From: Gautieria morchelliformis
Taxonomy: Eukaryota > Basidiomycota > Agaricomycetes > Gomphales > Gomphaceae
Reading direction: 5' to 3'
DNA length: 64,000 bases
Assembly (NCBI GenBank): GCA_015179125.1
Contig: WHVA01000267.1
Coordinates: forward strand, 85,811-149,810
In this document: positions 3,184 through 55,662 of the stretch, piece by piece
Layout of the letters: every line of letters begins with the position of its first letter
Numbering within the stretch: the first letter of the stretch is position 1
Notes under the pieces: generated by a model
Database searches by the model: none
What the model saw: only the letters and a program-made list of their open reading frames with translations
Told to the model about the DNA's origin: nothing
Translations under genes and position numbers: made by a program

Positions 3184-3681
3184 TGTAGAGGACAGGAATT
3201 ATAGGCAGTAGGTATGGACTTGTTATTCAAAAGAATAGACTAGAAATCAATTCACTCTCTCAGTGAATTTAGTGGTCACTGTAAATATATTATACACTAC
3301 CTAGAAATCAATTCATTACAGAGGATTTCTAGGTCAATAAATGTAAAGACTACTAGACTAATTTACTTGCCTCTCTCAGTGAATTTAGTGGTCACTGAGA
3401 GAGGGGGAAATGTGTTCCACTGCGCATGTACTACTACCCGGCCCTTTAGCGCCCAAGAGCTCGCGCGTCGAAGTCATTTCAGACTCCGCTGGGTGCAGCC
3501 GCTTGTGAAAGTAGGAATAACAAGATGAAATAGAGAGATAAGGAATGAGTGGAAAATTTCGAAAATAACCAGAGAAATGGATGCATAATACAAGAACAAT
3601 GTGAGAAGAAATTGGAAGGCCACACAACAAATTGGATATATTATGCTTGATTTTGGTGCAGGAGCATAAATGCACCCAACA
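3184..3681 (-). repeat. 5' LTR of the copia element
   Basis: This 498-bp LTR starts TGTTGGGTGCAT on the minus strand and ends just before the Gag start, 5 bp from the ATG. It is near-identical to the solo LTR at 36134-36630, which sets both ends. The direct repeat around 3243-3280 and 3370-3400 (CTCTCTCAGTGAATTTAG) lies inside. The outer flank 3682-3686 (ACAAC) should be the target duplication; its partner lies left of the window. The very short LTR-to-ATG distance leaves little room for a primer-binding site and is odd. Confidence 0.85.
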
Positions 3682-20937: not shown

Positions 20938-22480
20938 CCGAGTTGACTACATCATGGCGAAAACACTGTGTCGCTTATTGACGCGACGTACAGGCTGTGA
21001 GAGGTATGTTCTCATCTCAGGCGCCAGTGATGATAATTCACTCACCAGTTAACCACGCCCCATATCCATAGTGATAGCATCACGCTTTTCGTGTTGTACC
21101 ATAAAGTGACACGATGACGATCACTGCCGGCCAAGAATTTCCCTGGCAAAAGCTCTGCTCTGGACCAACTTGTCCATCCACAGCGCCCAGATCGGGGATT
21201 CGGTGCTTCCACGCATCTAGGTAACATTCAGACATCTGGAGCAATACCCGATATCGTCGACGACCTTGCAGGCAAGTTTTTTGGGAAGCTGCCCCGGCAA
21301 GACTAGACCTGGTTCGGGCAGTTGCCGGTACCGTCATACCAGGTGGTCGAGCATGCTTGTTTCCCGCCCATCGTCTAACATTTCCCTGTCGTAGTATATG
21401 CCATTGGCTGGGAATTTCATGCCGATAGAGAGCATTATCACGTTTCTACAACATCTGACTTATCAAGTTTGCCATTTCCTTCTCAGTCGGGGATGTTGTC
21501 CTGATGCACGGTAGATATCACAGTAAGTAGATGATTATCTCTTGCTAAATCGTCCATCATTTACTCGAACTCGCAGATCCATGGCGTCGTTGATGACTTC
21601 GAAGATCTCACTCACCGTCTGTCCCTGTCCACAGGAACATGCCGTTGATCCTTGAGAGGGACCACGGCGAGCAGAGAGGAGAATCTGAGAGGACGAGCCC
21701 AGACGCAGGGACGAGCGCCGACAGACGATGAGGGGCAAACCCATCGAGCATCCCTACTTAAATGCCGCGAGATCCAATTTCGTGAGCATTTATATAGGGA
21801 TGCTGCACGCACTATTCCAAGGTGGCCACCGGAATCGTCACGATATCTCACCAATCCCGGTTCGAACGAGTCGGTAGGTGTATCAAGCTCGCAGGTGAGA
21901 TTTCTCCAGTTTCGTCTGTTGCAGATGACGCCGCGATTGGTCTCCCGGGGTAGCGATGAAGGGAATATCTCCAGCCCTCGCAAAGCCAAACCATCATTGC
22001 CCTCCGTGGACTTTGCTTGCGAGTTACCAGTATTACGACTGGTGATGAAGGTACCTCTCGGCATCCATCTTCCAGAGCCCGTCTCCTGACACGTTTACCT
22101 CGGTCCCCGAGTATGTAACCATTAGTTGTACAATCGTGTGGATGGGAAATTTCAGAATCGTGATCGTGGAACCACTCTGGAAGGGAGATTAGTGGAAGTG
22201 TAATCGGTGGGCACACCGGATTTCTCAGAGTGTATCGCCTTGAGAGATCAGCTGCACCAAGAGATGGCAGGTAAGATTCAGAAAGCTCTTTTATGCCCCC
22301 AAGGTGTGGTGAGGAAATATTGTACTAGTGTCATCTAGCTCTCACACGTTGTTACCCCGAAGAATATCTGCTGCGGTGGTGATGGGTATATATATGCATT
22401 GTTGATACCTGGAGAGTTGATGCGCAGCTCTCCTTGAATGCATTGAGGATCAACATCCCATTACTCTTGGACGGGAACGG
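20938..22480. repeat. Duplicated blocks D2 and Y, left copy
   Basis: 20938-21360 is repeated directly at 29831-30505. From 21230 to 22480 the block is repeated inverted at 39182-40410. A 122-codon antisense frame (22216-21848; partner 39428-39796) is open in both copies but begins at GTG, so coding is doubtful. A TATATATGC run near 22390 and A+T-rich DNA lie at the right end. Confidence 0.65.
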
Positions 22481-22489
22481 CGAGTATCT

Positions 22490-23165
22490 GAGGGGCGGTT
22501 ATTCCACCCTGGTATATCCTTTTAGGCTGTAGGACAAGGCTCGGCAACGCAAGGACCGTGAGTGGTGCCGTGTTGGTGATCCGGATCGTCCCGATATTCT
22601 CACTAATCCCAATTCAAGTTGTAGCCTGTAGTGTAGGTGCTCCAAGTTGCGTGTATCGTTGCACTGCCGGACGACGCGTTGGTGCCTGATGCGTCGATGC
22701 ATTTCCAGACGACGCGTTGGTACCCCACGTGTCGATGCACTGCCGGACAACGCGTTGGTGCCCCGCGTGTCAATGCACTGGCAGACGTGTTCGAGACGAC
22801 GCGTTGGTGCCCCACGTGTTGAGACACTGCCCGACGACGCGTCGATTGGAACCAGAACAAGCTTCAAAGTACCATCGCATACAGAATTTGTGTTGTACTT
22901 ATGTTATTTTGATAACTCGCGAATTCAAAGTGGCCAGCGATTTGACAAAAAACAATTTTTTTATAGGCGTGCAAGGTGCGTGTATCGATGCAGATGACGC
23001 CTCGATTGGAGCTGGATGGAAAAAAACTGCTAAGTACGACCGCTCATGGACCGTCTGCGTGGTTTCGTAAGAAGTCAGGATCATAAGGTTTGATGGCTCC
23101 GAGTCGGGTCTTCCAAAGACACCACGAGACACGTACTAATTTATCATGTACTGTATAATATCGTC
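22490..23165. repeat. X2 repeat with a 38-bp minisatellite, left copy
   Basis: Inverted match to 54965-55560. From about 22656 to 22850 a unit of about 38 bp (GACGACGCGTTGGTGCC...CGTGTCGATGCACTGCC) occurs five times with changes. Several overlapping ORFs on both strands are a by-product of the repeats. Confidence 0.7.
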
Positions 23166-30510: not shown

Positions 30511-30886
30511 ATCAGCAAAATGGCGCGGACGTGGTATGAGCTTATGTAACTTGTCAGTCTACAACAGGAAATTCGTGCCTACCTATGTAATTACAGGGAT
30601 ATGTTATTCTTTATACCACTTGTGATATATATATAGGCGTTTTAGTGATGTTATCAGACTAATCAAAGTCTTTCCTGCCGTTGTAACTCAATTCAAGACA
30701 GATACTCACCGTGTTCCTGTCCAAGAGTAATCACCGCGTTTTGGCAGTTGAAATTCGGTTTGAAAGTAAGTATTAGTCAATGTGGCCGGCCATAAGCTGC
30801 CGGCTGACGCGCATGTATATTTACCCTACCAGACCTTCACATATGGCATCTATTTGCAGGCTATGATTGCTTCCAAAAGGGATCCA

Positions 30887-31230
30887 CCTGATGCATCTAG
30901 ACCGGCCATTCGAACCGAGAATAACTGATACATACGCTATCCAACTGTATCTAGCAGACTGCTCTATTGGTTGTTCGAGTGCCTCGGCCTGCTTCTGTAA
31001 GGCATCGACCAGATGGATCTAGACTGGGCATTCGAACCCGAGAATAACTGATACCCACATTATCCAACTGTATCTAGCCGACTGCTCTATTGTTTGTTCG
31101 AGTGCCTTGGCCTGCTTCTGTAAGGGATCGACCCGATGCATCTAGACCGGGCATTCGAACCCGAGAATAACTGATACCCACATTATCCAACTGTATCTAG
31201 GCGACTACTCTATTGTTTGTTCGATCGCAT
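30887..31230. repeat. Subterminal tandem repeat, unit about 122 bp
   Basis: Nearly three units start GCATCTAGACCGG/GATCTAGACTGGG at about 30892, 31015 and 31138. Subterminal repeats are the usual transposase-binding sites of CACTA elements. On the minus strand each unit holds a GGTTCGAATGC motif preceded by TAGATACAGTTGG, resembling tRNA promoter boxes. Confidence 0.75.
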
Positions 31231-31291
31231 CAAAACAAACGCCAGTCCATATAAAGAGATCATACTACTCAACGCACGTACTACTATACTA

Positions 31292-31340
31292 ACTTCGTAC
31301 GGTTTAAGCAGTACTAAACTCTGCTTAAACCGTATGAAGT
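31292..31340. other. 19-bp stem hairpin upstream of the transposase
   Basis: ACTTCGTACGGTTTAAGCA and TGCTTAAACCGTATGAAGT pair with one mismatch around an 11-base loop. It lies 180 bp upstream of the transposase ATG and just before a TATATAAC motif (31352). Confidence 0.7.
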
Positions 31341-31519
31341 ACGGGTCTTATATAACGTCTCTCTTTGCCTCTTGCCACCATCCCCTGCATCGCCACTTGA
31401 TCAAGCCGGCCTGCAGCTTGTGAGCATGTCACAGCAACATTTCCATGTCACTGCCACCCATCGACAGGTGAGTACTGCTAGCTTTGGCGAGACAGCCATC
31501 ATATACCAACTTATAGTAT

Positions 31520-34500
31520 ATGCCTCAGGGGTCTTCGTCTGTCCGCCGCGTATTGTGCACATGTGTCGAATGTCGTGCATTCCCCAACAAGGATCAGGAT
31601 GGCTGTTTCGTCACACAGCGCCAGAAGCAGAAACATGAAGAGAAGCAACTAACTCTGCCCATTAGCTGTCGAGAGAACCGTCGGATCTCACCACTGGAGA
31701 AATATAATAGAGGGAGAGGCAGAGGCAGAGGGGCTATATCTGTCAAACGTGCACTTCACACTGGTGGATCACAGGTCGCAGGGCCATCCCAACTCAACAC
31801 TCATCTCCAAGAAGATGAGGACTGTAAGTTTCTCCTTTCATCTGTCTCATATTGTACTTATACGGGCATGTTCGAGTTAGATGATGAAGCACAACTGGTC
31901 CCTGAGGTCTCCCAAGCCGAGTCAAAATTTGATTCAGATGGACTAATGGTACATTCTAGTTTGCATCAAATACCTAGACATACGCTAATTTTACACTTCT
32001 TCAGGATGTGGGTATTGGCAATTGTGTCCATGAGAGTGCTGGCAAAGAAACCCCGATGGAGACCCTGGCTTCTGGTTACTCGAGCGCACAAGACCCCAAC
32101 TTGCCGGCCATGGAACTTAACACTGTGTTTGAGGATGAAGAGGATGAACCCTCACGTGATCTTCCTGATGATTATATCTGGATATATGCCGAGAACCCCA
32201 TGGCATCTCCAGCAGCGTCGAACTCTGACGTCGAATCTCTTTCACAGGCAGACTCTCAACAGCACACAAAATCCGACACAGCATCATTGCAATCACCATC
32301 TAGTGGTGCAGAGCCAGGGAATGTCAAGGCTGACCCCTGGCCACTGGCACTGGCAAGTTCAGCTCCTGTCCTCAACACAATGGACTCGTTCTCAGCATCC
32401 AACGAACATTGGTATATCCGTATAATTTTTCTCCTTATAGCTTTTCTTCTCACTAAACACCACCTGTCATTCCGCGCCTGTGGGATATTATTGTGGAGTT
32501 TGCGCATGGTCTTCATTTTAGTCAGCTGGATATCTGAGGAGAACTGCATGCCGACTATGCTAGGGACTGTGTTCACCCATCTAGGACTCACTGATCGTTT
32601 CACCCTCTTAATAGTTTGCCCCAAGTGTCGCACTGTGTCTGGGAAACCAGTGGCTGTTCCCAAATCCGAGGAAGAAGCCATGTGTTCTCAATGCCAAACA
32701 TGGCTCTACCACCAAATATCCTCCTCGTATTTTGACCTTGGTCCAGACAAACGACCAAGCGTGAAGAAGCCTGTCAAGCCTAAAGTTGTCATGCCCTTTG
32801 CTTCTCTCAAAGACCTTCTTAGCGAATTACTTGCACGTCCAGGAATGGAAGACCAACTTGATGCCTGGCATGAGCAGCCAGCCACAGAAGGCACATACAA
32901 GGCCATTTGGCATGGTAACATCTGGAAGACGATATGCGATGCTGATGGGAACCTCTTTTTTGGGCCTCGTAAGGACGACGAGTTACGTATTGGGGTGGCT
33001 TGTGGCCTTGACTGGTACACTGTATTCTCTACTGTTATCAAACATTTTATGCAGGCTTCTCAATGTGATCTAGGTTCCAGGCCCGCCGTGGCTATTTCTC
33101 CCCAAGTCACTCATCAGGCGTAGTTTCTATGGCCTTGGCAAATCTGCCATGTGAGATAAGTAAATTTTTTTGATATTGCTTGATTGTGCTAAAATAAGGT
33201 CTCCAGATACCATGTCGAGAATATGTTCATCCCGACATTCACTGCCGGGCTGACTGAACCTACAGCCGACCAACTTCAGCACCAGGTGAAGTTCGTGGTC
33301 GACGAGTTGCTCCGACTGTATACCCATGGTGTTATAATAAAAACTCCTCGGTTTCCTAATGGTAAGTGATATCTCATATAGTTTGTCTGTACTCATGCCA
33401 CACCAGGTTGCCTAGTGCGCGTTGTTTGCATTGCTCTCGTTTGTGATCACCCGGAAGCGGTCAAGATGTGTGGGTCAGCTGACAAGGGTCACAATCAACT
33501 GCCATGCACACACTGTCAGGTCCCGAAAGAAGACCTGTTCTCAGATGAGGCATTGTGTGATGGTGAGTATGTGCTTGTTTCTGGTTCATGCAGGGTGCTA
33601 TGATACATCACAGGATATCACGAGCATGATACTAAAACACATATTAGGCAGGCATACAAATACACCACCTTGGATACAGATTCTGAGCGTGAAGACTTCT
33701 TCTCTAAGTATGGGACGAGGTGGTTTGAATTTGCCCAGCTCAAGTATTTCGATCCGATTAGGATGACGGTGATCGATCCAATTCACAACTTGTTAATAGG
33801 TACGTATTGTTGTACCTCAAATTGTCAGAACTATTTAGTACTTATTGTTTAGGTGTATTGAAGAATCACTGGTATTCTATATGGATACAGGGGAAAGCCC
33901 TTCGAGCAAAAACTCAAAAAAACAAACGAGAGCTTGATCTGGTTCATGAACTTCTAAATTCGGTAATTTGTCATGATCTATCATATAATGATTCGCATTG
34001 ATGACTATGGTGCGCAGTTTGAGATGCCATCATTTGTAGGTCGACCGGCGAGGCAGGTTGGAGAGCCGGCAGGTGGAAGTTTATCTGCCAACACATACAA
34101 GGGCCTAGGGTGCGTCTTTTTGCCTGCCCTGGTGAGTACTTTCTCACATGCTTCTTATCCATCATGCTTATCTGTCATGTGTGCTTACACCATATTTTAT
34201 GAGATTCCATTTGTATGGGAAGCCTCCCTACCGGGAGCTCACAAGGAATTTCAACAAGCGAGTGAAACATTTTCAAGGCGCTATGATGAATGGCAGAAGA
34301 AACACGGTGACGTGTATCTAGCCCACCAAGAAGGCACCGCCCCTAAACGTAATCTCATTATTATTGACGGCTCTATATTGATGTCAATCTGTAGGGTCAC
34401 AGGCATCAACCGTTCGGAATAAAAAATTAGTCGAACCCCCTAAGGCAGCCGAATTGCGCATGCGTCCCGGGGATGATTTGCTCTTTCTCAAATTAGGAGC

Positions 34501-35875
34501 CGCAACCAAGATCTATACACAGTACAAAATAATGCACAAGGATGTGCGGTGCACAGAAGTGTTGGTGCAGGAATATTTAATGGGCTTCAAAAAGGTCAAT
34601 ATGTTGTTTTTGATTCACTTGCAGATAGGTCTGATTCTTCAGACAGAGGTATGGCATTGAGAAGATGAAACCCAACCACCATTTCCTCGTGCATCTCCCC
34701 GCTCAAATTCATGACTACGGCCCTGTATATGGTTTTTGGTGCTTCCTCGGGGAACACCTGAACAAACTCTTGAAAATTTTCCAGAGTAATAACTGGGGTG
34801 GTGGTCAATTAGAGGTGAGCATGATGCGTGAGTGGGGACGAGATGTTCAGCTTCATGAAATGGTACGCGTTCATTGCGGTGACTTATTTGAGGTACTCAC
34901 CCCAAAACACATGTTGATCAGTTGCGCTTGATAGCTGAATCAGAAACGATGAATGAACGTTGGGTAGCTGGCCATCTAATCAAGAATCCGACAGAGGCCC
35001 AAGGTACTGTTGAAGCTGTGGCTGCGGCCAGGGAGAATGCGTTGATGGATGGTACGAGCTCACTCATCAACATGGTACTTACCAGCTAATAACAACAGCG
35101 TCCCTACATTCAGATTTGATTTGAGGACCTGTCATTGCACAGCTCAAAGTTACCCCTCGAACTGCAGATCGTGCATTGCTAGCACACTACAAAGATATCG
35201 GAAGGGCCTCACCCCTGTATCTCCCATTGGATATGTCAGCACCCCCATCAGCTCGCTATCTCACCTCTCGTGCCACGTATTATTGCTATGTCATTCTGAA
35301 TGGACGGCGGTACACAACTGCCCCATACCAGCAATGCGTCTCTGGTTAAGGCACAACTTAATGACAAGTTGTTGTATGGGGAAATTACCTCTATTTTGAG
35401 CACCTGCAGCCAGGCTACCCTCCATTTCTCTTCGCTGAAATCAGGTGGTTCAAAACACTTCAAGATTGTCCGCTAGAAACCGATGTGTGGGCAGATTTGT
35501 CAGTTGGATTCCTGATCCAAAGGTGTTTTAGCTCATCAGTGTTTTCACAGTCCTGAACTCGATGTGCAATTCCATGCTCGCGATGTTGAAGCTGAATTTG
35601 ATGCCAGGTATGCGGTCATACTATTTGAAAAAATTGTCTGCCATCTTGCACGGGGCATCTTACCTCGGACTGATCCACCTCAATGGATCACGATAACCCT
35701 GGATAAAGTACATACATGTTTTCCTGAGGACATCAATTTTGCTGACTTCATCCCACATGTGGTTAGATGAGTGCGATTGTCTCTTGATCTCTAACGATAT
35801 ACATGTGTGTAGCCATGTAACAAACCCAATTTCCTCTATTTCGGGAACAGAATGAGAGCGTGCACAACAAAGTGA
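31520..35875 (+). CDS. Tnp2-family transposase of the CACTA element (multi-exon)
   Basis: A gene with many short introns. It begins MPQGSSSVRR with a Cys motif (CTCVEC). Further on come a CPKC...CSQC zinc-like pair (about 32620-32700), GPRKDDELRIGVACGLDW, then SPSHSSGVVSMALANLPCEI, CDHPEAVKMCGSADKGH with CTHC, FFSKYGTRWFEFAQLKYFD and VIDPIHNLLIG, and VGEPAGGSLSANTYKGLG. This order is that of the Transposase_21/Tnp2 family, which cuts and pastes CACTA elements through their TIRs. The intron at 33015-33073 joins DW to FQARRGYF, the expected family reading. The last intron (35762-35812) leads to a stop at 35873-35875. Whether every exon is intact cannot be settled by eye. Confidence 0.8.
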
Positions 35876-35946
35876 ATGCAGCGATACAGCAATGGTAAAA
35901 AAGCGCTCCAAGAATAACAATAATGCGGGTCAAGAAGTCTATCATG

Positions 35947-38674
35947 TTAAGCATCCTCCATCTCACCCTCATACCCATCATCATCATCAACCACCACGTC
36001 ATCAAGAGTGTCCTTCGGTACAAATTGCTGGTAGAGACCGATGCCGGGTGGGTTGTTCCCATCTGTAGGCCACATACTCACATATTCACTGTATTGGGGA
36101 CACTTGAGCTTCTCCTCCCTCCAATCTGGGTCATGTGGAGGACAGGAATTATAGGCAGTAGGAATGGACTTCTTGCGCAAAAGAATAGACTAGAAATTAA
36201 TTCACTCTCTCAGTGAATTTAGTTGTCACTATAAATATATTATACACTACCTAGAAATTAATTCACTACAGAGGATTTCTAGGTTAATAAATCGAAAGAA
36301 TGCTAGACTAATTTACTTGCCTCTCTCAGTGAATTTAGTTGTCACTGAGAGAGGGGGAAACTGTTTCACTGCGCATGTACTACTACCCGGCCCTTTAGCG
36401 CCCAAGAGCTCGCGCGTCGAAGTCATTTCAGACTCCGCTGGGTGCAGCCGCTTGTGAAAGTAGGAATAACAAAATGAAATAGAGAGACAGGGAGTGAGTG
36501 GAAAATTTCGAAAATAACCAGAGAAATGGATGCATGATACAAGAACAACATGAGAAGAAATTGAGAAAGCACACAACAAATTGGATATATTATGCTTGAT
36601 TTTGGTGCAGGAGCATCAATGCACCCAACAGGTCAGTCATAAAGGGGGGCGGGATCATCAATGCTGGCTTATCGGTCATTCGTCCAGATTCTTGACACGT
36701 TTGTATTTAAAGGCATGTCTTTCTGTTTCAGTCAAACTGAGCCTGTGGATCCTGCTAAGCTCATGCATTATTTCAGTCACCTATCACATGATTTGGTTAT
36801 CAATAAACCAAATACCACCACTATCGTGCACTCACAATTAGTATCCGCCACTTAGGTTCTATCACTTCCAAAATGCCAATGTCGTCGTGAGCATCACTAT
36901 TCCCCATGAATCATAGTCTCTGCAGCATCTCAGTCCTCCTTTCGTCCCCTGACGATCTGCTTCAGTTTCACACAGCAAAATGCCTTCAGGCTCGCTATCC
37001 TCTTCGGACATCCAATCCATATGAAGCATGGGCCGTGGATCAAAATGGTAATTCAAGATGAACCTCGGCACTGCTGACATCCGTGCCTTGAGTTTCTGTG
37101 GATCATATTAATTGGTGTCTGTGCATATTAGGAAAATTGGCACACTTCCACTTACCGGGCCCTGTGACGGCCCACCTTACGGTTCGTTCATCCCATTCTC
37201 TCTTTGGCCTCATTATTTTGACTTTGATATTTTGTACAGTAGCCTCGAAATGTCGTCTTGACCAAGTGAGAGAGTAAGTCCCGGTTGACGGGGATGTCTT
37301 CATACATCTCGAGAACAATATCAGGGGGAAATTCCTAGCTTATTGTGAGTACTATTGGTCTTTAGATGCGCCAGGAACACTGACATTGAGCGACTGTACT
37401 GCCAAATCAACAGTCTTATTGAATATCAGTTTATTAGCAGGATGTGTGACATCTTGGTCGAAACGGGGGTCGAGGAATGGTTCGCTGCTAAAGCTCAAGC
37501 GTGCCACGGTATTTGCATTGTGAGGCCCAGGAAGCGGGACTTCAGGCTTGGTTCGCTTATGAGTCGTGACAATGCCTATGATTTCCTTGAAGAAATCACG
37601 GACTAGCTCCTATTAGATATGTAAGTTCATAATCTATTGCGTGATACCGAAAGCTAACCTGCAACAGCTTTTTGAGTTTATGTTCCCGAGGTGAGAGTTG
37701 ATTATGTTTAGTGGACAGAAAGGATTTAATCCTGTCATCCCTCGCAATCGTTACAAATCCTCCGCCTCCATCGTGTCCACTCACTCTCTTCAAGGAGCGT
37801 CCTCAGGAGCTTCCTCCCATTGCTCTGCCATGAGACGGCATCGCTTTTTCTTGCCTGTTTCCTGAAACAAAGTGAGCTCATAATTGTTGTGTAAACATTA
37901 TATGTGATGTACCATGATTGTATTGCTTCACAGCTTGTGACAGAGATATATCAGATTGACCATGCCTATGAAAATCAGCTTATTCCAGGAGGAATATCTC
38001 AGTGCCGAACCTCAGGACATCGTCAGGTACAACGGAGTCAGACCTGCATATGTGGTGAGCATTCATGACGACTCAATGGCATAACCCTAACTTGCCTCGT
38101 CTGGTCGCCGACGGTGCCTTGATGTTCCTGTCCAGGACCTCCGTGCGTGTGCTCATTATCACCGTGATGGTTTTCTGGGGCAACATCAATCATGAGAATC
38201 AAATACTGAAGACGATTAAATGCTTACCTTTCGCTGCGGGAGTAGGATCTGAGAATTGAAACAGCTGATACTTGGTGAGTGATCTTCAACAAATGTATGC
38301 TCACTTACAAGGCATGGCTCTGTTAGCACGGCTGACCTTCACCTTCACCTTCTTCATGATCACTTCATGATCACTTCAAGATCGCTATCGAGATCGCTGG
38401 TGGCCTTACGCTTGTTCCTGGCATTATCGAAGGGTTCCGGGGCCTGGGTTTCTTCATCGGTTGGGGAGTCATCAGGCTTCTCCGTGTATGCCTTGCGAAC
38501 CTCAAAGGGAAGTGACTTCCAGTTGGTGTACAGGATACCATCAACATGTTTAGGCGGCTTGGTATATGGATCATGCGCAACTTTCGATATTACAGGCATG
38601 GGGATTACAGGAGGTGGATGATAGTAGGGAAGAAAAAGTCCAATGCGCGTGGTGGCTTGTGGTCGCGTTTTCAT
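35947..38674 (-). CDS. Second CACTA gene, unknown product, interrupted by a solo LTR
   Basis: The first exon starts at ATG 38674 (MKTRPQATTRIGLFLPYYHP) and is open to about 38360, with an acidic region (KPDDSPTDEETQ). Other coding-like minus-strand pieces follow: SPREHKLKKLLQV (near 37700), VRDFFKEIIGIVTTHKRTKP (37605-37540), KREWDERTVRWA (near 37200), MDWMSEEDSEPEG (near 37000) and an acidic tail DDVVVDDDDGYEGEMEDA ending at 35947. The gene converges on the transposase with 71 bp between stops. No family was recognised. CACTA elements often code a second, DNA-binding protein; that role is inferred. The LTR at 36134-36630 lies inside and should disrupt it unless spliced. Confidence 0.55.
36134..36630 (-). 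repeat. Copia solo LTR inside the CACTA element
   Basis: A 497-bp near-copy of the LTR at 3184-3681, with TG...CA ends and GGTCA on both sides (36129-36133; 36631-36635). It arose by recombination between two LTRs after insertion into the CACTA element. Confidence 0.9.
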
Positions 38675-39181
38675 TTGTTTAGATGTAAATGACGCAACGT
38701 GTTTAATTAGGATTGATACTACTATATGTGGGCAGTAACTATATGTTTACGCGTTTTGTGTATATACCGCTGTATGTCACCTTGGCTTGAGTTGCCCAAT
38801 TGATAGAAAGTGCTGACTGGTAGTCTAATGTATTCAAAATGCATAAGTGCCGCCTAGGTGTAGGTCGGAGCATATATTTGCTCTGTGATCATGAGCTGTG
38901 TGCGGACTGGGGCAAACGTGGACGAGTATATTTGGTACTCGAGCGTAGCTATGTTTCGAACTTAATTAGATGTCAGGGAGCTAAAATACTTGACGTAGGG
39001 AGTTAGACAGTGTATCTAGAGCATTGGATATATTTGGATTTTTGGCCCAAAGATATGGGGGCGGATCTACTGAGTGTTCGGTGTGTTGGGGTAATCACAC
39101 TGTAATACGGCGCTAAATGCCCGGCTGGACTCATCTATTTGGACGATTTGGACGGCAAATTTGACCCCACAAAACGCGGTG

Positions 39182-40410
39182 AATGGGATGTTGATCCTCA
39201 ATGCATTCAAGGAGAGCTGCGCATCAACTCTCCAGGTATCAACAATGCACATATATACCCATCACCACCGCAGCAGATATTCTTCGGGGTAACAACATGT
39301 GAGAGCTAGATGACACTAGTACAATATTTCCTCACCACACCTTGGGGGCATAAAAGAGCTTTCTGAATCTTACCTGCCATCTCTTGGTGCAGCTGATCTC
39401 TCAAGGCGATACAATCTGAGAAATCCGGTGTGCCCACCGATTACACTTCCACTAATCTCCCTTCCAGAGTGGTTCCACGATCACGATTCTGAAATTTCCC
39501 ATCCACACGATTGTAGAACTAATGGTTACATACTCGGAGACCAAGGTAAACGTGTCAGGAGATGGGCTCTGGAAGATGGATGCCGAGAGGTACCTTCATC
39601 ACCAGTCGTAATACTGATACCTCGCAAGCAAAGTCCACGGAGGGCAATGATTGTTTGCCTTTGCGAGGGCTGGAGATGTTCCCCTCATCGCTACCCCGGG
39701 AGACCAATCGCGGCGTCATCTGCAACAGACGAAACTGCAGAAATGTCACATGCGAGCTTAATACACCTGCCGACTCGTTCGAACCGGGATTGGTGAGAGA
39801 TCGTGACGATTCCGGTGGCCACCTTGGAATAGTGCGTGCAGCATCCCTATATAAATGCTCACGAAATTGGATCTCGCGACCATTTAAGTAGGGATGCTCG
39901 ATGGGTTTGCTCCTCATCGTCTGTCGGCGCTTGTCCCTGCGTCTGGGCTCGTCCTCTCAAATTCTCCTCTCTGCTCGCCGTGATCCTTCTCAAGGATCAA
40001 CGGCATGTTTCTGTGGACAGGGACAGACGCTGAGCGAGATCTTCGAAGTCATCAACGACGCCATGGATCTGCGAGTTCGAGTAAATGATGGACGATTTAG
40101 CAAGAGATAATCATCTACTTACTGTGATATCTACCGTGCATCAGGACAACATCCCCGACTGAGAAGGAAATGGCAAACTTGATAAGTCAGATGTTGTAGA
40201 AACGTGATAATGCTCTCTATCGGCATGAAATTCCCAGCCAATGGCATATACTACGACAGGGAAATGTTAGACGATGGGCGGGAAACAAGCATGCTCGACC
40301 ACCTGGTATGACGGTACCGGCAACTGCCCGAACCAGGTCTAGTCTTGCCGGGGCAGCTTCCCAACAAACTTGCGCGCAAGGTCGTCGACGATATCGGGTA
40401 TTGCTCCAGA
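39182..40410. repeat. Block Y, right copy
   Basis: Inverted match to 21230-22455. It directly follows the CACTA element. The GTG-started 122-codon frame (39428-39796) mentioned for the left copy is also open here. A near-identical start region (TTTAAGTAGGGATGCTCGATG near 39885) follows, without a recognised product. Confidence 0.7.
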
Positions 40411-40420
40411 TGTCCAAATG

Positions 40421-41500
40421 TCACAGGGGAGGTTGTCCCGTGAAGGGGAGAGGTTGTCCCGCGAATGGAAGAGGCGCAGGCCCACCAGGTGGGGCAGGAA
40501 TCTGGGCCGGGGGCTGTTGCGGGGGAGGTTGTCCTGCGAATGGAAGAGGCACAGGCCCGCCAGGTGGGGCAGGAATCTGGGCTGGAGGTTGGTACAGGGG
40601 AGGTTGTCCCACAAACAGGTGAGGTTGTCCTGCGAATAGAGGTGGGGCACTGCCAAAAGGCAAAGCATTCGGGTCATAATAGGGCACGCCAGTAATGGGA
40701 TAGCCAAGATTTTGCTTGGGCGCAGGGTCAGCGTGATGTCCCTGGTCCGCCAAAGGTGGGTCGCAAGGGGAAGTAGGTTGAGAGCTGACTCGAGTATGGT
40801 CACTATGTACCGAATGGTGAAGACTGCAAAGAGCCTGCGAAGAGTGTGAAGAAACATGTGAGTGATGCGAATGAGATGAAGAATTGTGCGAAGCGGGTGT
40901 GCGAGCCCAGGATCCTGCATGTACAGGGGTGGTATGCCTAGAATTGAGAGGAGATGTAGGCTGGGGGTTAAGAGGACGCTGGGCGTAGTGCACGTCGAGA
41001 AAAGGGTTCGGAGTGTGACTAGGCGAAGCAGGTGGCAAGTGGGGTCGTGCAAAGGCCGATTGTAATCTGAGTCCTGAAGCACCGGCAATCCGAGGGAGCC
41101 TAGAAGGATAAGGTTCTTGAAATGTGCTAGGGTTTTGTGGGCAGCCGCTGGGCGAATTAGGGGCAAATAAGAAGCGTAAAGAATCGGCGCCGGGCCTATG
41201 ACTAGATATGGGGGTGCTGGCTGAAAGTGGTCGCTGAGGGGAGAAATGCTGTTCGCCTGGAGTCAGCTGCTGTTGAACATCGAAAAGAGGGGGTGATGCG
41301 TGTTCGGGGACCGGGTGGTATGGTGTAGGCCGAGATGCAGACATGGCGATGAGGCGAGAGAAGGGGATAATGTCCTCTGTGGGGTTTTGCGAAGGGAACG
41401 AGGCGGAAGCTGCTCGCCTCTGGAGTGGTGCTGGAGTGGGAACTGGACCTGTCGAGCGGGTTCTATGGACAACAGGGTTTTCTTGTTGTGTAGATGACAT
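40421..41500 (-). CDS. Gypsy Gag-like N-terminal ORF, truncated
   Basis: ATG at 41500 lies 48 bp inside the LTR end at 41548. The 359-codon frame is Pro-, Ser- and His-rich, with repeats of the type PPAQIPAPPGGPxPLPFAGQ near the end (40540-40430). It ends where the duplicated Y block begins, so the stop is probably not the natural one. The same FAGQP motif appears at 63290-63305 after another LTR of this family, which supports Gag identity. No capsid or zinc-knuckle part remains; protease and beyond are lost. Confidence 0.6.
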   Translation of the reverse strand: MSSTQQENPVVHRTRSTGPVPTPAPLQRRAASASFPSQNPTEDIIPFSRLIAMSASRPTPYHPVPEHASPPLFDVQQQLTPGEQHFSPQRPLSASTPISSHRPGADSLRFLFAPNSPSGCPQNPSTFQEPYPSRLPRIAGASGLRLQSAFARPHLPPASPSHTPNPFLDVHYAQRPLNPQPTSPLNSRHTTPVHAGSWARTPASHNSSSHSHHSHVSSHSSQALCSLHHSVHSDHTRVSSQPTSPCDPPLADQGHHADPAPKQNLGYPITGVPYYDPNALPFGSAPPLFAGQPHLFVGQPPLYQPPAQIPAPPGGPVPLPFAGQPPPQQPPAQIPAPPGGPAPLPFAGQPLPFTGQPPL

Positions 41501-54964: not shown

Positions 54965-55560
54965 AGACAACTCGTCGATATTATACAGTCCATGATAAAT
55001 TAGTACGTGTCTCGTGGTGTATTCGGAAGACCCGACTCAGAGCCATCAAACCTTGTGATCCTGAATTCTTACAAAACCATGCAAACGGTCCATAAGTGGT
55101 CGTACTTAGCAGCTTTTTTCATCCCGCTCCAATCGAGGCGTCATCTGCATCAATACACGCACCTTGACGCCTAGTAAGTACAACACACATTCCATATTCG
55201 GCGCTACTTTGAAGCTTGTTCTGGTTCCAATCGACACGTTGTCGGGCAGTGTCTCAACACGTGGGGCACCAATGCGTCGTCTCGGACACGTCTGGCAGTC
55301 CATCGACACGTGGGGTACCAACGCGTCGTCTGGAAATGCATCGACGCATCAGGCACCAACACGTCGTCCGGCAGTGCAATGATACACGCAACTTGGAGCA
55401 CCTACACTACAGGCTACAACTTGAATTGGGATTAGTGAGAATTTCGGGACGATCCGGATCACCAACACGGCACCACTCACGGTCCTTGCGTTGCCGAGCC
55501 TTGTCCTACAGCCTAAAAGGATATATCAGGGTGGAATAACCGTCCTCAGATACTCGCCGC
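54965..55560. repeat. X2 repeat with minisatellite, right copy
   Basis: Inverted match to 22490-23165, with fewer 38-bp units (about 55240-55385) and a deletion of about 70 bp near 55175. Confidence 0.75.
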
Positions 55561-55662
55561 GTTCCCGTCCAAGAGCAATGGGATGTTGATCCTCAATGCA
55601 TTCAAAGAGAGCTGCGCATCAACTCTCCAGGTATGAACAATGCATATATATACCCAGCGAGA
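55545..55662. repeat. Short piece of block Y
   Basis: Inverted match to about 22385-22500. It ends in TATATATACCCAG, where it joins LTR3/X1 sequence. Confidence 0.65.

What the first reader, a model, noticed from the sequence alone, without database searches (positions are those of the whole stretch)
30732..39181. Complete CACTA transposon proven by an empty site, with a convergent second gene
Both ends (CACCGCGTTTTG and complement), an AAT target duplication and an uninterrupted paralogous site near 22440-22470 define an 8,450-bp element to the base. It codes a Tnp2 transposase on the plus strand and, tail to tail with 71 bp between stops, a second multi-exon gene I cannot place in any family. 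Termini start CACCG, not CACTA. A complete, two-gene element of this kind in a fungus deserves a proper description, above all the second gene, which may be the DNA-binding partner.
Basis: partly seen in the sequence, partly recalled or inferred. Interest (0 to 1): 0.75.

Follow-up and report, generated by a model that had tools for sequence, protein, structure and literature searches.

The report
Decayed two-gene fungal CACTA transposon
This is a complete-ended but genetically broken copy of a fungal jumping gene of the CACTA kind, and its unclassified second gene turns out to be a conserved tail-to-tail partner of this branch of transposases, probably a helper protein for jumping.

Summary
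Two uninterrupted paralogous sites, not one, cross the insertion point; 13 of 14 two-ended loci have a perfect 3-bp duplication. Gene 1 is an EnSpm/CACTA (Tnp2) transposase; CAC..GTG ends with 3-bp duplications are already published for fungal EnSpm. "Complete" is wrong for the genes: a 497-bp LTR-like insert, counted in the 8,450 bp, splits the last exon of gene 2, and both genes have frame-breaking indels; of six copies compared only C91 is open in both models. New: gene 2 reaches no cut-off in Pfam or NCBIfam and finds nothing in the PDB, but has 26 diverged relatives here; 14 of 26 lie within 15 kb of a gene-1 relative, all 14 tail to tail, though some are near-copies of each other. pN/pS of gene 2 is 0.34-0.53 outside the window copy. 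A TNPA-like helper role is the best guess, unproven. A non-autonomous family has multiplied recently.

The parts
30729..30731 (.). left target-site duplication AAT
30732..30743 (+). left terminal inverted repeat CACCGCGTTTTG (12 bp perfect; pair I2 is 25 bp at 80%, including one flanking base)
30868..31236 (+). left subterminal tandem repeat, about 123-bp unit, three copies; no such array at the right end
31426..35875 (+). gene 1, EnSpm/Tnp2 DDE transposase, about 16 exons by a model projected from copy C91 (31426-31467, 31517-31823, 31881-31948, 32005-33014, 33074-33159, 33207-33361, 33407-33562, 33614-33799, 33853-33962, 34018-34348, 34395-34560, 34643-34862, 34922-35051, 35099-35498, 35551-35761, 35813-35875); frame-broken in this copy
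   Evidence: last exon read by eye
35876..35946 (.). 71-bp gap between the two stop codons
35947..38674 (-). gene 2, unclassified partner protein (585 aa in copy C91), 10 exons by model; disrupted in this copy
36134..36630 (.). nested 497-bp LTR-like insert (TG..CA ends, 5-bp GGTCA duplication at 36129-36133 and 36631-36635) inside the last exon of gene 2; multicopy
39170..39181 (-). right terminal inverted repeat CAAAACGCGGTG
39182..39184 (.). right target-site duplication AAT
21221..22490 (-). first uninterrupted paralogue of the insertion site
55547..55656 (+). second uninterrupted paralogue of the insertion site (110 bp across the junction)

Best explanation
The feature is a dead copy of a fungal EnSpm/CACTA cut-and-paste transposon that normally carries two genes placed tail to tail. 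Shown: the ends, the 3-bp duplication, the empty sites, the family of copies, the transposase motifs, the defects, and the convergent pairing of gene 2 with this transposase branch in diverged elements. Inferred: the gene 1 transposase cuts at the CACCGCGTTTTG ends; the gene 2 protein is a dedicated co-factor that helps bring the ends together or regulates the transposase by binding DNA or the transposase, in the way that plant TNPA works with TNPD, though no sequence kinship was found; both proteins act in trans and have recently moved the 2.6-kb non-autonomous family that shares little beyond the ends.
For: Ends and 3-bp duplications in 13 of 14 two-ended loci. Gene 1 model of C91 over the Pfam Tnp2 cut-off (PF02992, 30.8 against 28.6 bits) and D451, D568, C(2)C 588, H(3-4)H 883, E908 in the expected order (catalytic residues assigned by eye). 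Gene 2: 12 of 22 diverged loci have a gene-1 relative within 15 kb, all 12 convergent; random placement would give about 0.2. Two of four further loci likewise (by eye), so 14 of 26. The pairing is seen in at least three mutually diverged lineages that I read: C91, C427, C342. Gene 2 pN/pS is 0.34-0.53 for the five countable pairs among C91, C165, C631 and C861. Non-autonomous copies: 7 of 10 are 99.8-100% alike, at different sites.
Against: No DNA-binding domain or known fold is detected in gene 2 (the single-sequence fold of exon 1 was unusable). Besides the TIR only one 10-base word of C91 exceeded all 30 shuffles, carried by the left tandem repeat and found once at the right end, whereas plant TNPA sites lie in subterminal repeats. 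12 of 26 diverged gene-2 loci have no gene-1 relative found nearby. The 14 pairs are not independent: C342, C171 and C859 are near-copies of one family. The exon models come from my own script with hand choices, without RNA data.
Confidence: 0.5

Rival explanations
1. Gene 2 is a regulatory or anti-silencing factor of the element, not part of the cutting complex, comparable in role to the TET/JBP enzymes that other fungal EnSpm elements carry.
For: Fungal DNA transposons do carry such accessory genes (passages of PMC12730594). No DNA-binding fold and no clear binding motif at both ends was found.
Against: No similarity to TET/JBP or any enzyme family over cut-off; fixed convergent pairing over wide divergence suggests a basic role.
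Confidence: 0.3
2. Gene 2 is a passenger: a host gene or gene fragment captured once and carried along.
For: 12 of 26 diverged relatives stand without a detected gene-1 relative within 15 kb. Relatives of the N-terminal exon on other contigs, such as C271, have no gene-1 match on those contigs.
Against: The C271 locus carries two collinear gene-2 segments separated by other sequence, which looks like a remnant of gene 2 rather than a host source. pN/pS below 1 and 14 of 14 found pairs convergent speak against a passenger.
Confidence: 0.12
3. Gene 2 is not a gene but a chance run of open frames kept by relatedness of copies.
For: Exons are predicted by an untrained, hand-set model.
Against: Protein-level similarity at 33-65% identity in 22 diverged loci, invariant residues over C91, C427 and C342, pN/pS below 1.
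Confidence: 0.03
4. The uninterrupted paralogue at 22440-22470 is a deletion or excision product, so the ends are not proven.
For: Left of the junction only 33 bp are homologous.
Against: A second uninterrupted paralogue at 55547-55656, and the same ends with 3-bp duplications at 13 of 14 loci.
Confidence: 0.02

Closest known systems
Fungal EnSpm (CACTA) elements of the CMC(T) group, as in passages of PMC12730594
   Different: The second gene shows no TET/JBP dioxygenase match; in the passages read no convergent partner gene of this kind is described
Plant En/Spm (TNPD plus TNPA) and Tam1 (Tnp2 plus Tnp1), as in passages of PMC2613891
   Same: Two element proteins, one a Tnp2 transposase; second protein of similar size (66.7 kDa here, 67 kDa stated for TNPA); 3-bp duplication (stated there for a soybean CACTA)
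   Different: Here two separate convergent genes on opposite strands, not alternative products of one transcription unit; no match to an En/Spm Pfam model for gene 2; no clear motif repeated at both ends
Plavaka (Pfam PF18759)
   Same: Related transposase core, 21.5 bits
   Different: Below the 26.3-bit cut-off; published Plavaka ends TGT..ACA or CATCA..TGATG do not fit
Fungal CACTA-like proteins of DeMarco et al. 2006 (passages of PMC1636069)
   Same: Transposase_21 domain with an ID-x-M-H motif (IDPMHNLLIG here)
   Different: That work could not define ends for the fungal elements (passage)

Membership tests
EnSpm/CACTA | Tnp2 (Transposase_21) domain | tested here: met
   C91 gene 1 model 30.8 bits, cut-off 28.6. 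Ten single open frames of the window copy gave no Tnp2 match.
EnSpm/CACTA | DDE triad with C(2)C and H(3-4)H between second D and E | tested here: met
   Motif positions in C91 gene 1; catalytic residues assigned by eye; the rule is quoted from PMC12730594.
EnSpm/CACTA | 3-bp target duplication | tested here: met
   13 of 14 two-ended loci; C165 fails with either of its two left ends.
EnSpm/CACTA | CAC..GTG ends | tested here: met
EnSpm/CACTA | CACTA as the first five bases (plant type) | tested here: not met
   CACCG in the window copy and in every left end printed; the fungal definition only asks for CAC.
Plavaka | Pfam Plavaka over cut-off and TGT..ACA or CATCA..TGATG ends | tested here: not met
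   21.5 of 26.3 bits; ends CACCG.
Plant TNPA/TNPD system | second protein similar to TNPA/Tnp1 (En/Spm Pfam models) | tested here: not met
   No such match at E up to 1; plant TNPA and Tnp1 are themselves said to be unlike each other.
Plant TNPA/TNPD system | subterminal motif repeated at both ends | tested here: inconclusive
   10-base words with one mismatch: in C91 only TGTATCTAGA (four times left, once right) exceeds all 30 shuffles of the ends (15 against at most 14); the non-autonomous C275 ends stay within the range of the C91 shuffles; 123-bp tandem repeats at the left end only.
Plant TNPA/TNPD system | second protein binds the ends and is needed for transposition | not testable with these tools
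   Needs experiment.
TET/JBP-carrying fungal transposon | TET/JBP dioxygenase domain | tested here: not met
   No such match for gene 2 at E up to 1.
Autonomous element | both genes open in this copy | tested here: not met

The most novel reading that the evidence does not exclude
A branch of fungal EnSpm transposons has a standing two-gene design in which a protein family without any known relative, encoded tail to tail with the transposase, is an obligatory partner: an independent fungal counterpart of plant TNPA.
Probability: 0.4. Interest if true: 0.6.

Novelty: new variant of a known kind. Interest (0 to 1): 0.45.

Why it matters
A second gene that keeps its place and orientation across strongly diverged elements points to a missing half of the machinery of fungal CACTA elements, and a recent burst of non-autonomous copies with defined ends gives natural substrates for asking which protein and which end sequences are needed.

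Tried and rejected
Ten single open frames of the window's gene 1 against Pfam: nothing above noise; the spliced model of C91 reached the Tnp2 cut-off. Gene 2 against Pfam: one match far below its cut-off (BphC_D1, E 0.032, 14.5 of 27 bits), taken as chance; NCBIfam and PDB sequences: nothing (three-sequence profile). IMG/VR scan with a 63-residue C-terminal piece of gene 2: one pattern match, no relative. Fold of the N-terminal exon from the window alone: mean pLDDT 61.9, pTM 0.14, unusable, so no fold search was run. Shared short motif at both ends: one word above shuffles, due to the left tandem repeat. Captured host gene in the 2.6-kb elements: three open-frame pieces match no Pfam family over cut-off, and part of the interior is a multicopy repeat, so no claim is made. 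A first count of gene-2 codon changes used a wrong start and was replaced. Literature: eight searches listed no paper that I could recognise as describing such a convergent second gene; only passages of PMC12730594, PMC1636069 and PMC2613891 were read, their supplements and Repbase not at all.

Full report
Observation. The window holds an insertion at 30732-39181 with perfect 12-bp inverted ends CACCGCGTTTTG and an AAT duplication. With the flanks joined, window 22490-21221 aligns straight across the junction (96.9% over 1,273 bp, 33 bp of it on the left), and so does 55547-55656 (93.6% over 110 bp). The insertion therefore went into a repeated sequence, and two empty versions of that site lie in the same window.

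Family. The window lies in a 122-Mb assembly of 1,113 contigs. The left 21-mer occurs 17 times with up to two mismatches, the reversed control never. Full-length relatives are C91 (7,825 bp) and C165 (7,824 bp, 99.9% identical to C91); C631, C861, C439, C174, C227, C643 and C130 are partial or rearranged in the stretches fetched. Of 14 loci with both ends examined (13 fetched loci and the window), 13 have a perfect 3-bp duplication; C165 does not, with either of two possible left ends. Ten copies of a non-autonomous element keep about 350 bp of the left end (82-84% like the window) and 480 bp of the right end (90-92%); eight of the ten are 2.59-2.64 kb long. Seven of the ten are 99.8-100% identical and have different flanks, so they moved recently; C1000, C612 and C545 are at 96-99% (the C1000 row lacks its outer left end).

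The copy is broken. Against C91, the window copy holds a 497-bp insert at 36134-36630 with TG..CA ends and a GGTCA duplication, absent from C91, C165, C631 and C861; the first 367 bp of it match 32 other places at 98-99% in the capped list. I read it as a solo LTR; no full element with two such LTRs was sought. It lies within the last exon of gene 2. Gene 2 also has an 11-bp duplication and 7-bp and 1-bp deletions; gene 1 has 1-, 17- and 1-bp deletions and an in-frame stop on the C91 grid, beside a 6-bp insertion that keeps the frame. Of the six copies compared codon by codon, only C91 is open in both models. C165 has one 1-bp deletion in gene 1 and an open gene 2. C631 has a stop and a 1-bp deletion in gene 1, and a stop and insertions of 13 and 7 bp in gene 2. 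C861 has one stop in gene 2 and only a piece of gene 1. C174 is heavily rearranged.

Gene 1. The C91 model (1,197 aa before the last small exon) scores 30.8 bits with Tnp2 (cut-off 28.6) and 21.5 with Plavaka (cut-off 26.3). DADG (D451), CDHPA (D568), CTRC (588), HHFLVH (883) and GER (E908) lie in the order that PMC12730594 gives for EnSpm and its kin. The same paper gives CAC..GTG ends and 3-bp duplications as consistent with EnSpm (passages). Filing as fungal EnSpm/CACTA is safe, and the CACCG ends are not a surprise.

Gene 2. The C91 model has 585 residues in ten exons. It reaches no Pfam cut-off (best 14.5 of 27 bits, BphC_D1), has no NCBIfam match and no PDB match, alone or as a three-sequence profile. 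Searching the genome with its C-terminal part gave 49 matches that I merged into 30 loci: 8 close ones (83% or more, the window among them) and 22 diverged (33-65% identity). Of the 22, 12 have a relative of the gene 1 core within 15 kb and all 12 are tail to tail; random placement would give about 0.2 (binomial about 1e-19, using 35 gene-1 places). That figure excludes chance neighbourhood only: copies of one family inherit the arrangement, so the pairs are not independent. A second pair of queries from the most diverged element (C342) added C171, C859, C215 and C166; C171 and C859 are again tail to tail with gene 1 but are near-copies of C342, while C215 and C166 have no partner found (compared by eye). 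Together 14 of 26 are paired, none in another orientation, and the three lineages whose DNA I read (C91, C427, C342) are far apart in protein (identity to C91 52% and 34% over the C-terminal part). No contig with a diverged gene-2 locus is among those with a Pfam Tnp2 match (79 matches; compared by eye). Since that Pfam model also misses the exons of gene 1 itself, this says only that the Tnp2 genes which Pfam does see have no gene 2 found on their contigs. The 12 loci without a partner may be remnants, or have transposases too diverged for the search; I cannot tell. The N-terminal exon has further relatives (28-50% identity) on C815, C271, C959, C837, C986, C777 and C303 without a gene-1 match on those contigs.

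Selection. pN/pS of gene 2 is 0.39 for C91-C631, 0.35 for C91-C861, 0.37 and 0.34 for C165 with the same two, and 0.53 for C631-C861; it is 0.58-0.92 for the four pairs with the window copy, as expected for a copy that is decaying; C91-C165 has no synonymous and 3 other changes. For gene 1 it is 0.35-0.48 for the nine pairs with more than 500 codons, leaving out C91-C165 (no synonymous, 3 other changes), but 0.77-0.86 for the four pairs with the short C861 piece. These are simple counts without a test.

Mechanism. Shown: a cut-and-paste element with defined ends and two genes, a partner gene that keeps its place and its protein sequence, and recently moved non-autonomous copies. Inferred: the partner protein helps the transposase, most simply by binding the ends or the transposase, as TNPA does in En/Spm (background from passages of PMC2613891). 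Against this, no binding domain was found. Apart from the TIR, the only 10-base word above shuffled ends in C91 is TGTATCTAGA, four times left and once right; it belongs to the 123-bp tandem repeat at the left end. A regulatory or anti-silencing role remains a serious rival.

Novelty. The element is a new family of a known kind; the conserved convergent partner makes it a variant that I did not find described in the eight literature searches run (three papers seen in passages only). From recall, not from a call, proteins with the same kind of C-terminal motif (MSDE..SGP, LEV..PWR) are common among unnamed proteins of mushroom-forming fungi, so the protein family itself may be widespread and merely unnamed.

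Noticed in passing
L047-L056 (contigs C489, C387, C335, C332, C275, C163, C827, C1000, C612, C545): Non-autonomous family with the same ends; 7 of 10 copies are 99.8-100% identical with different flanks, so very recent movement. About 440 bp of the interior match many other places at 72-92% and are missing from the related C456 copy, so they look like a nested repeat.
   Followed up: partly
L038 500-970 (contig C165): The full-length C165 element is preceded by about the first 471 bp of a non-autonomous copy, and its left and right 3-bp flanks do not match; perhaps an insertion followed by a rearrangement.
   Followed up: partly
window 3184-3681: Second copy (93.8%) of the LTR-like sequence that sits inside gene 2.
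   Followed up: no
window 21221-22490, 30699-40424 (without the element), 55547-55656: The insertion target is itself a repeat; the two other copies begin at the same point, 33 bp left of the insertion. Another repeat ends just there, at 30698, and has copies at about seven other places.
   Followed up: no
L061 (contig C271): Locus with the N-terminal part and the RGxSLKRV segment of gene 2, separated by other sequence; no gene-1 match on this contig.
   Followed up: partly
contigs listed: 79 exon-level Tnp2 (PF02992) matches in the genome, none on a contig with a diverged gene-2 locus (compared by eye).
   Followed up: partly
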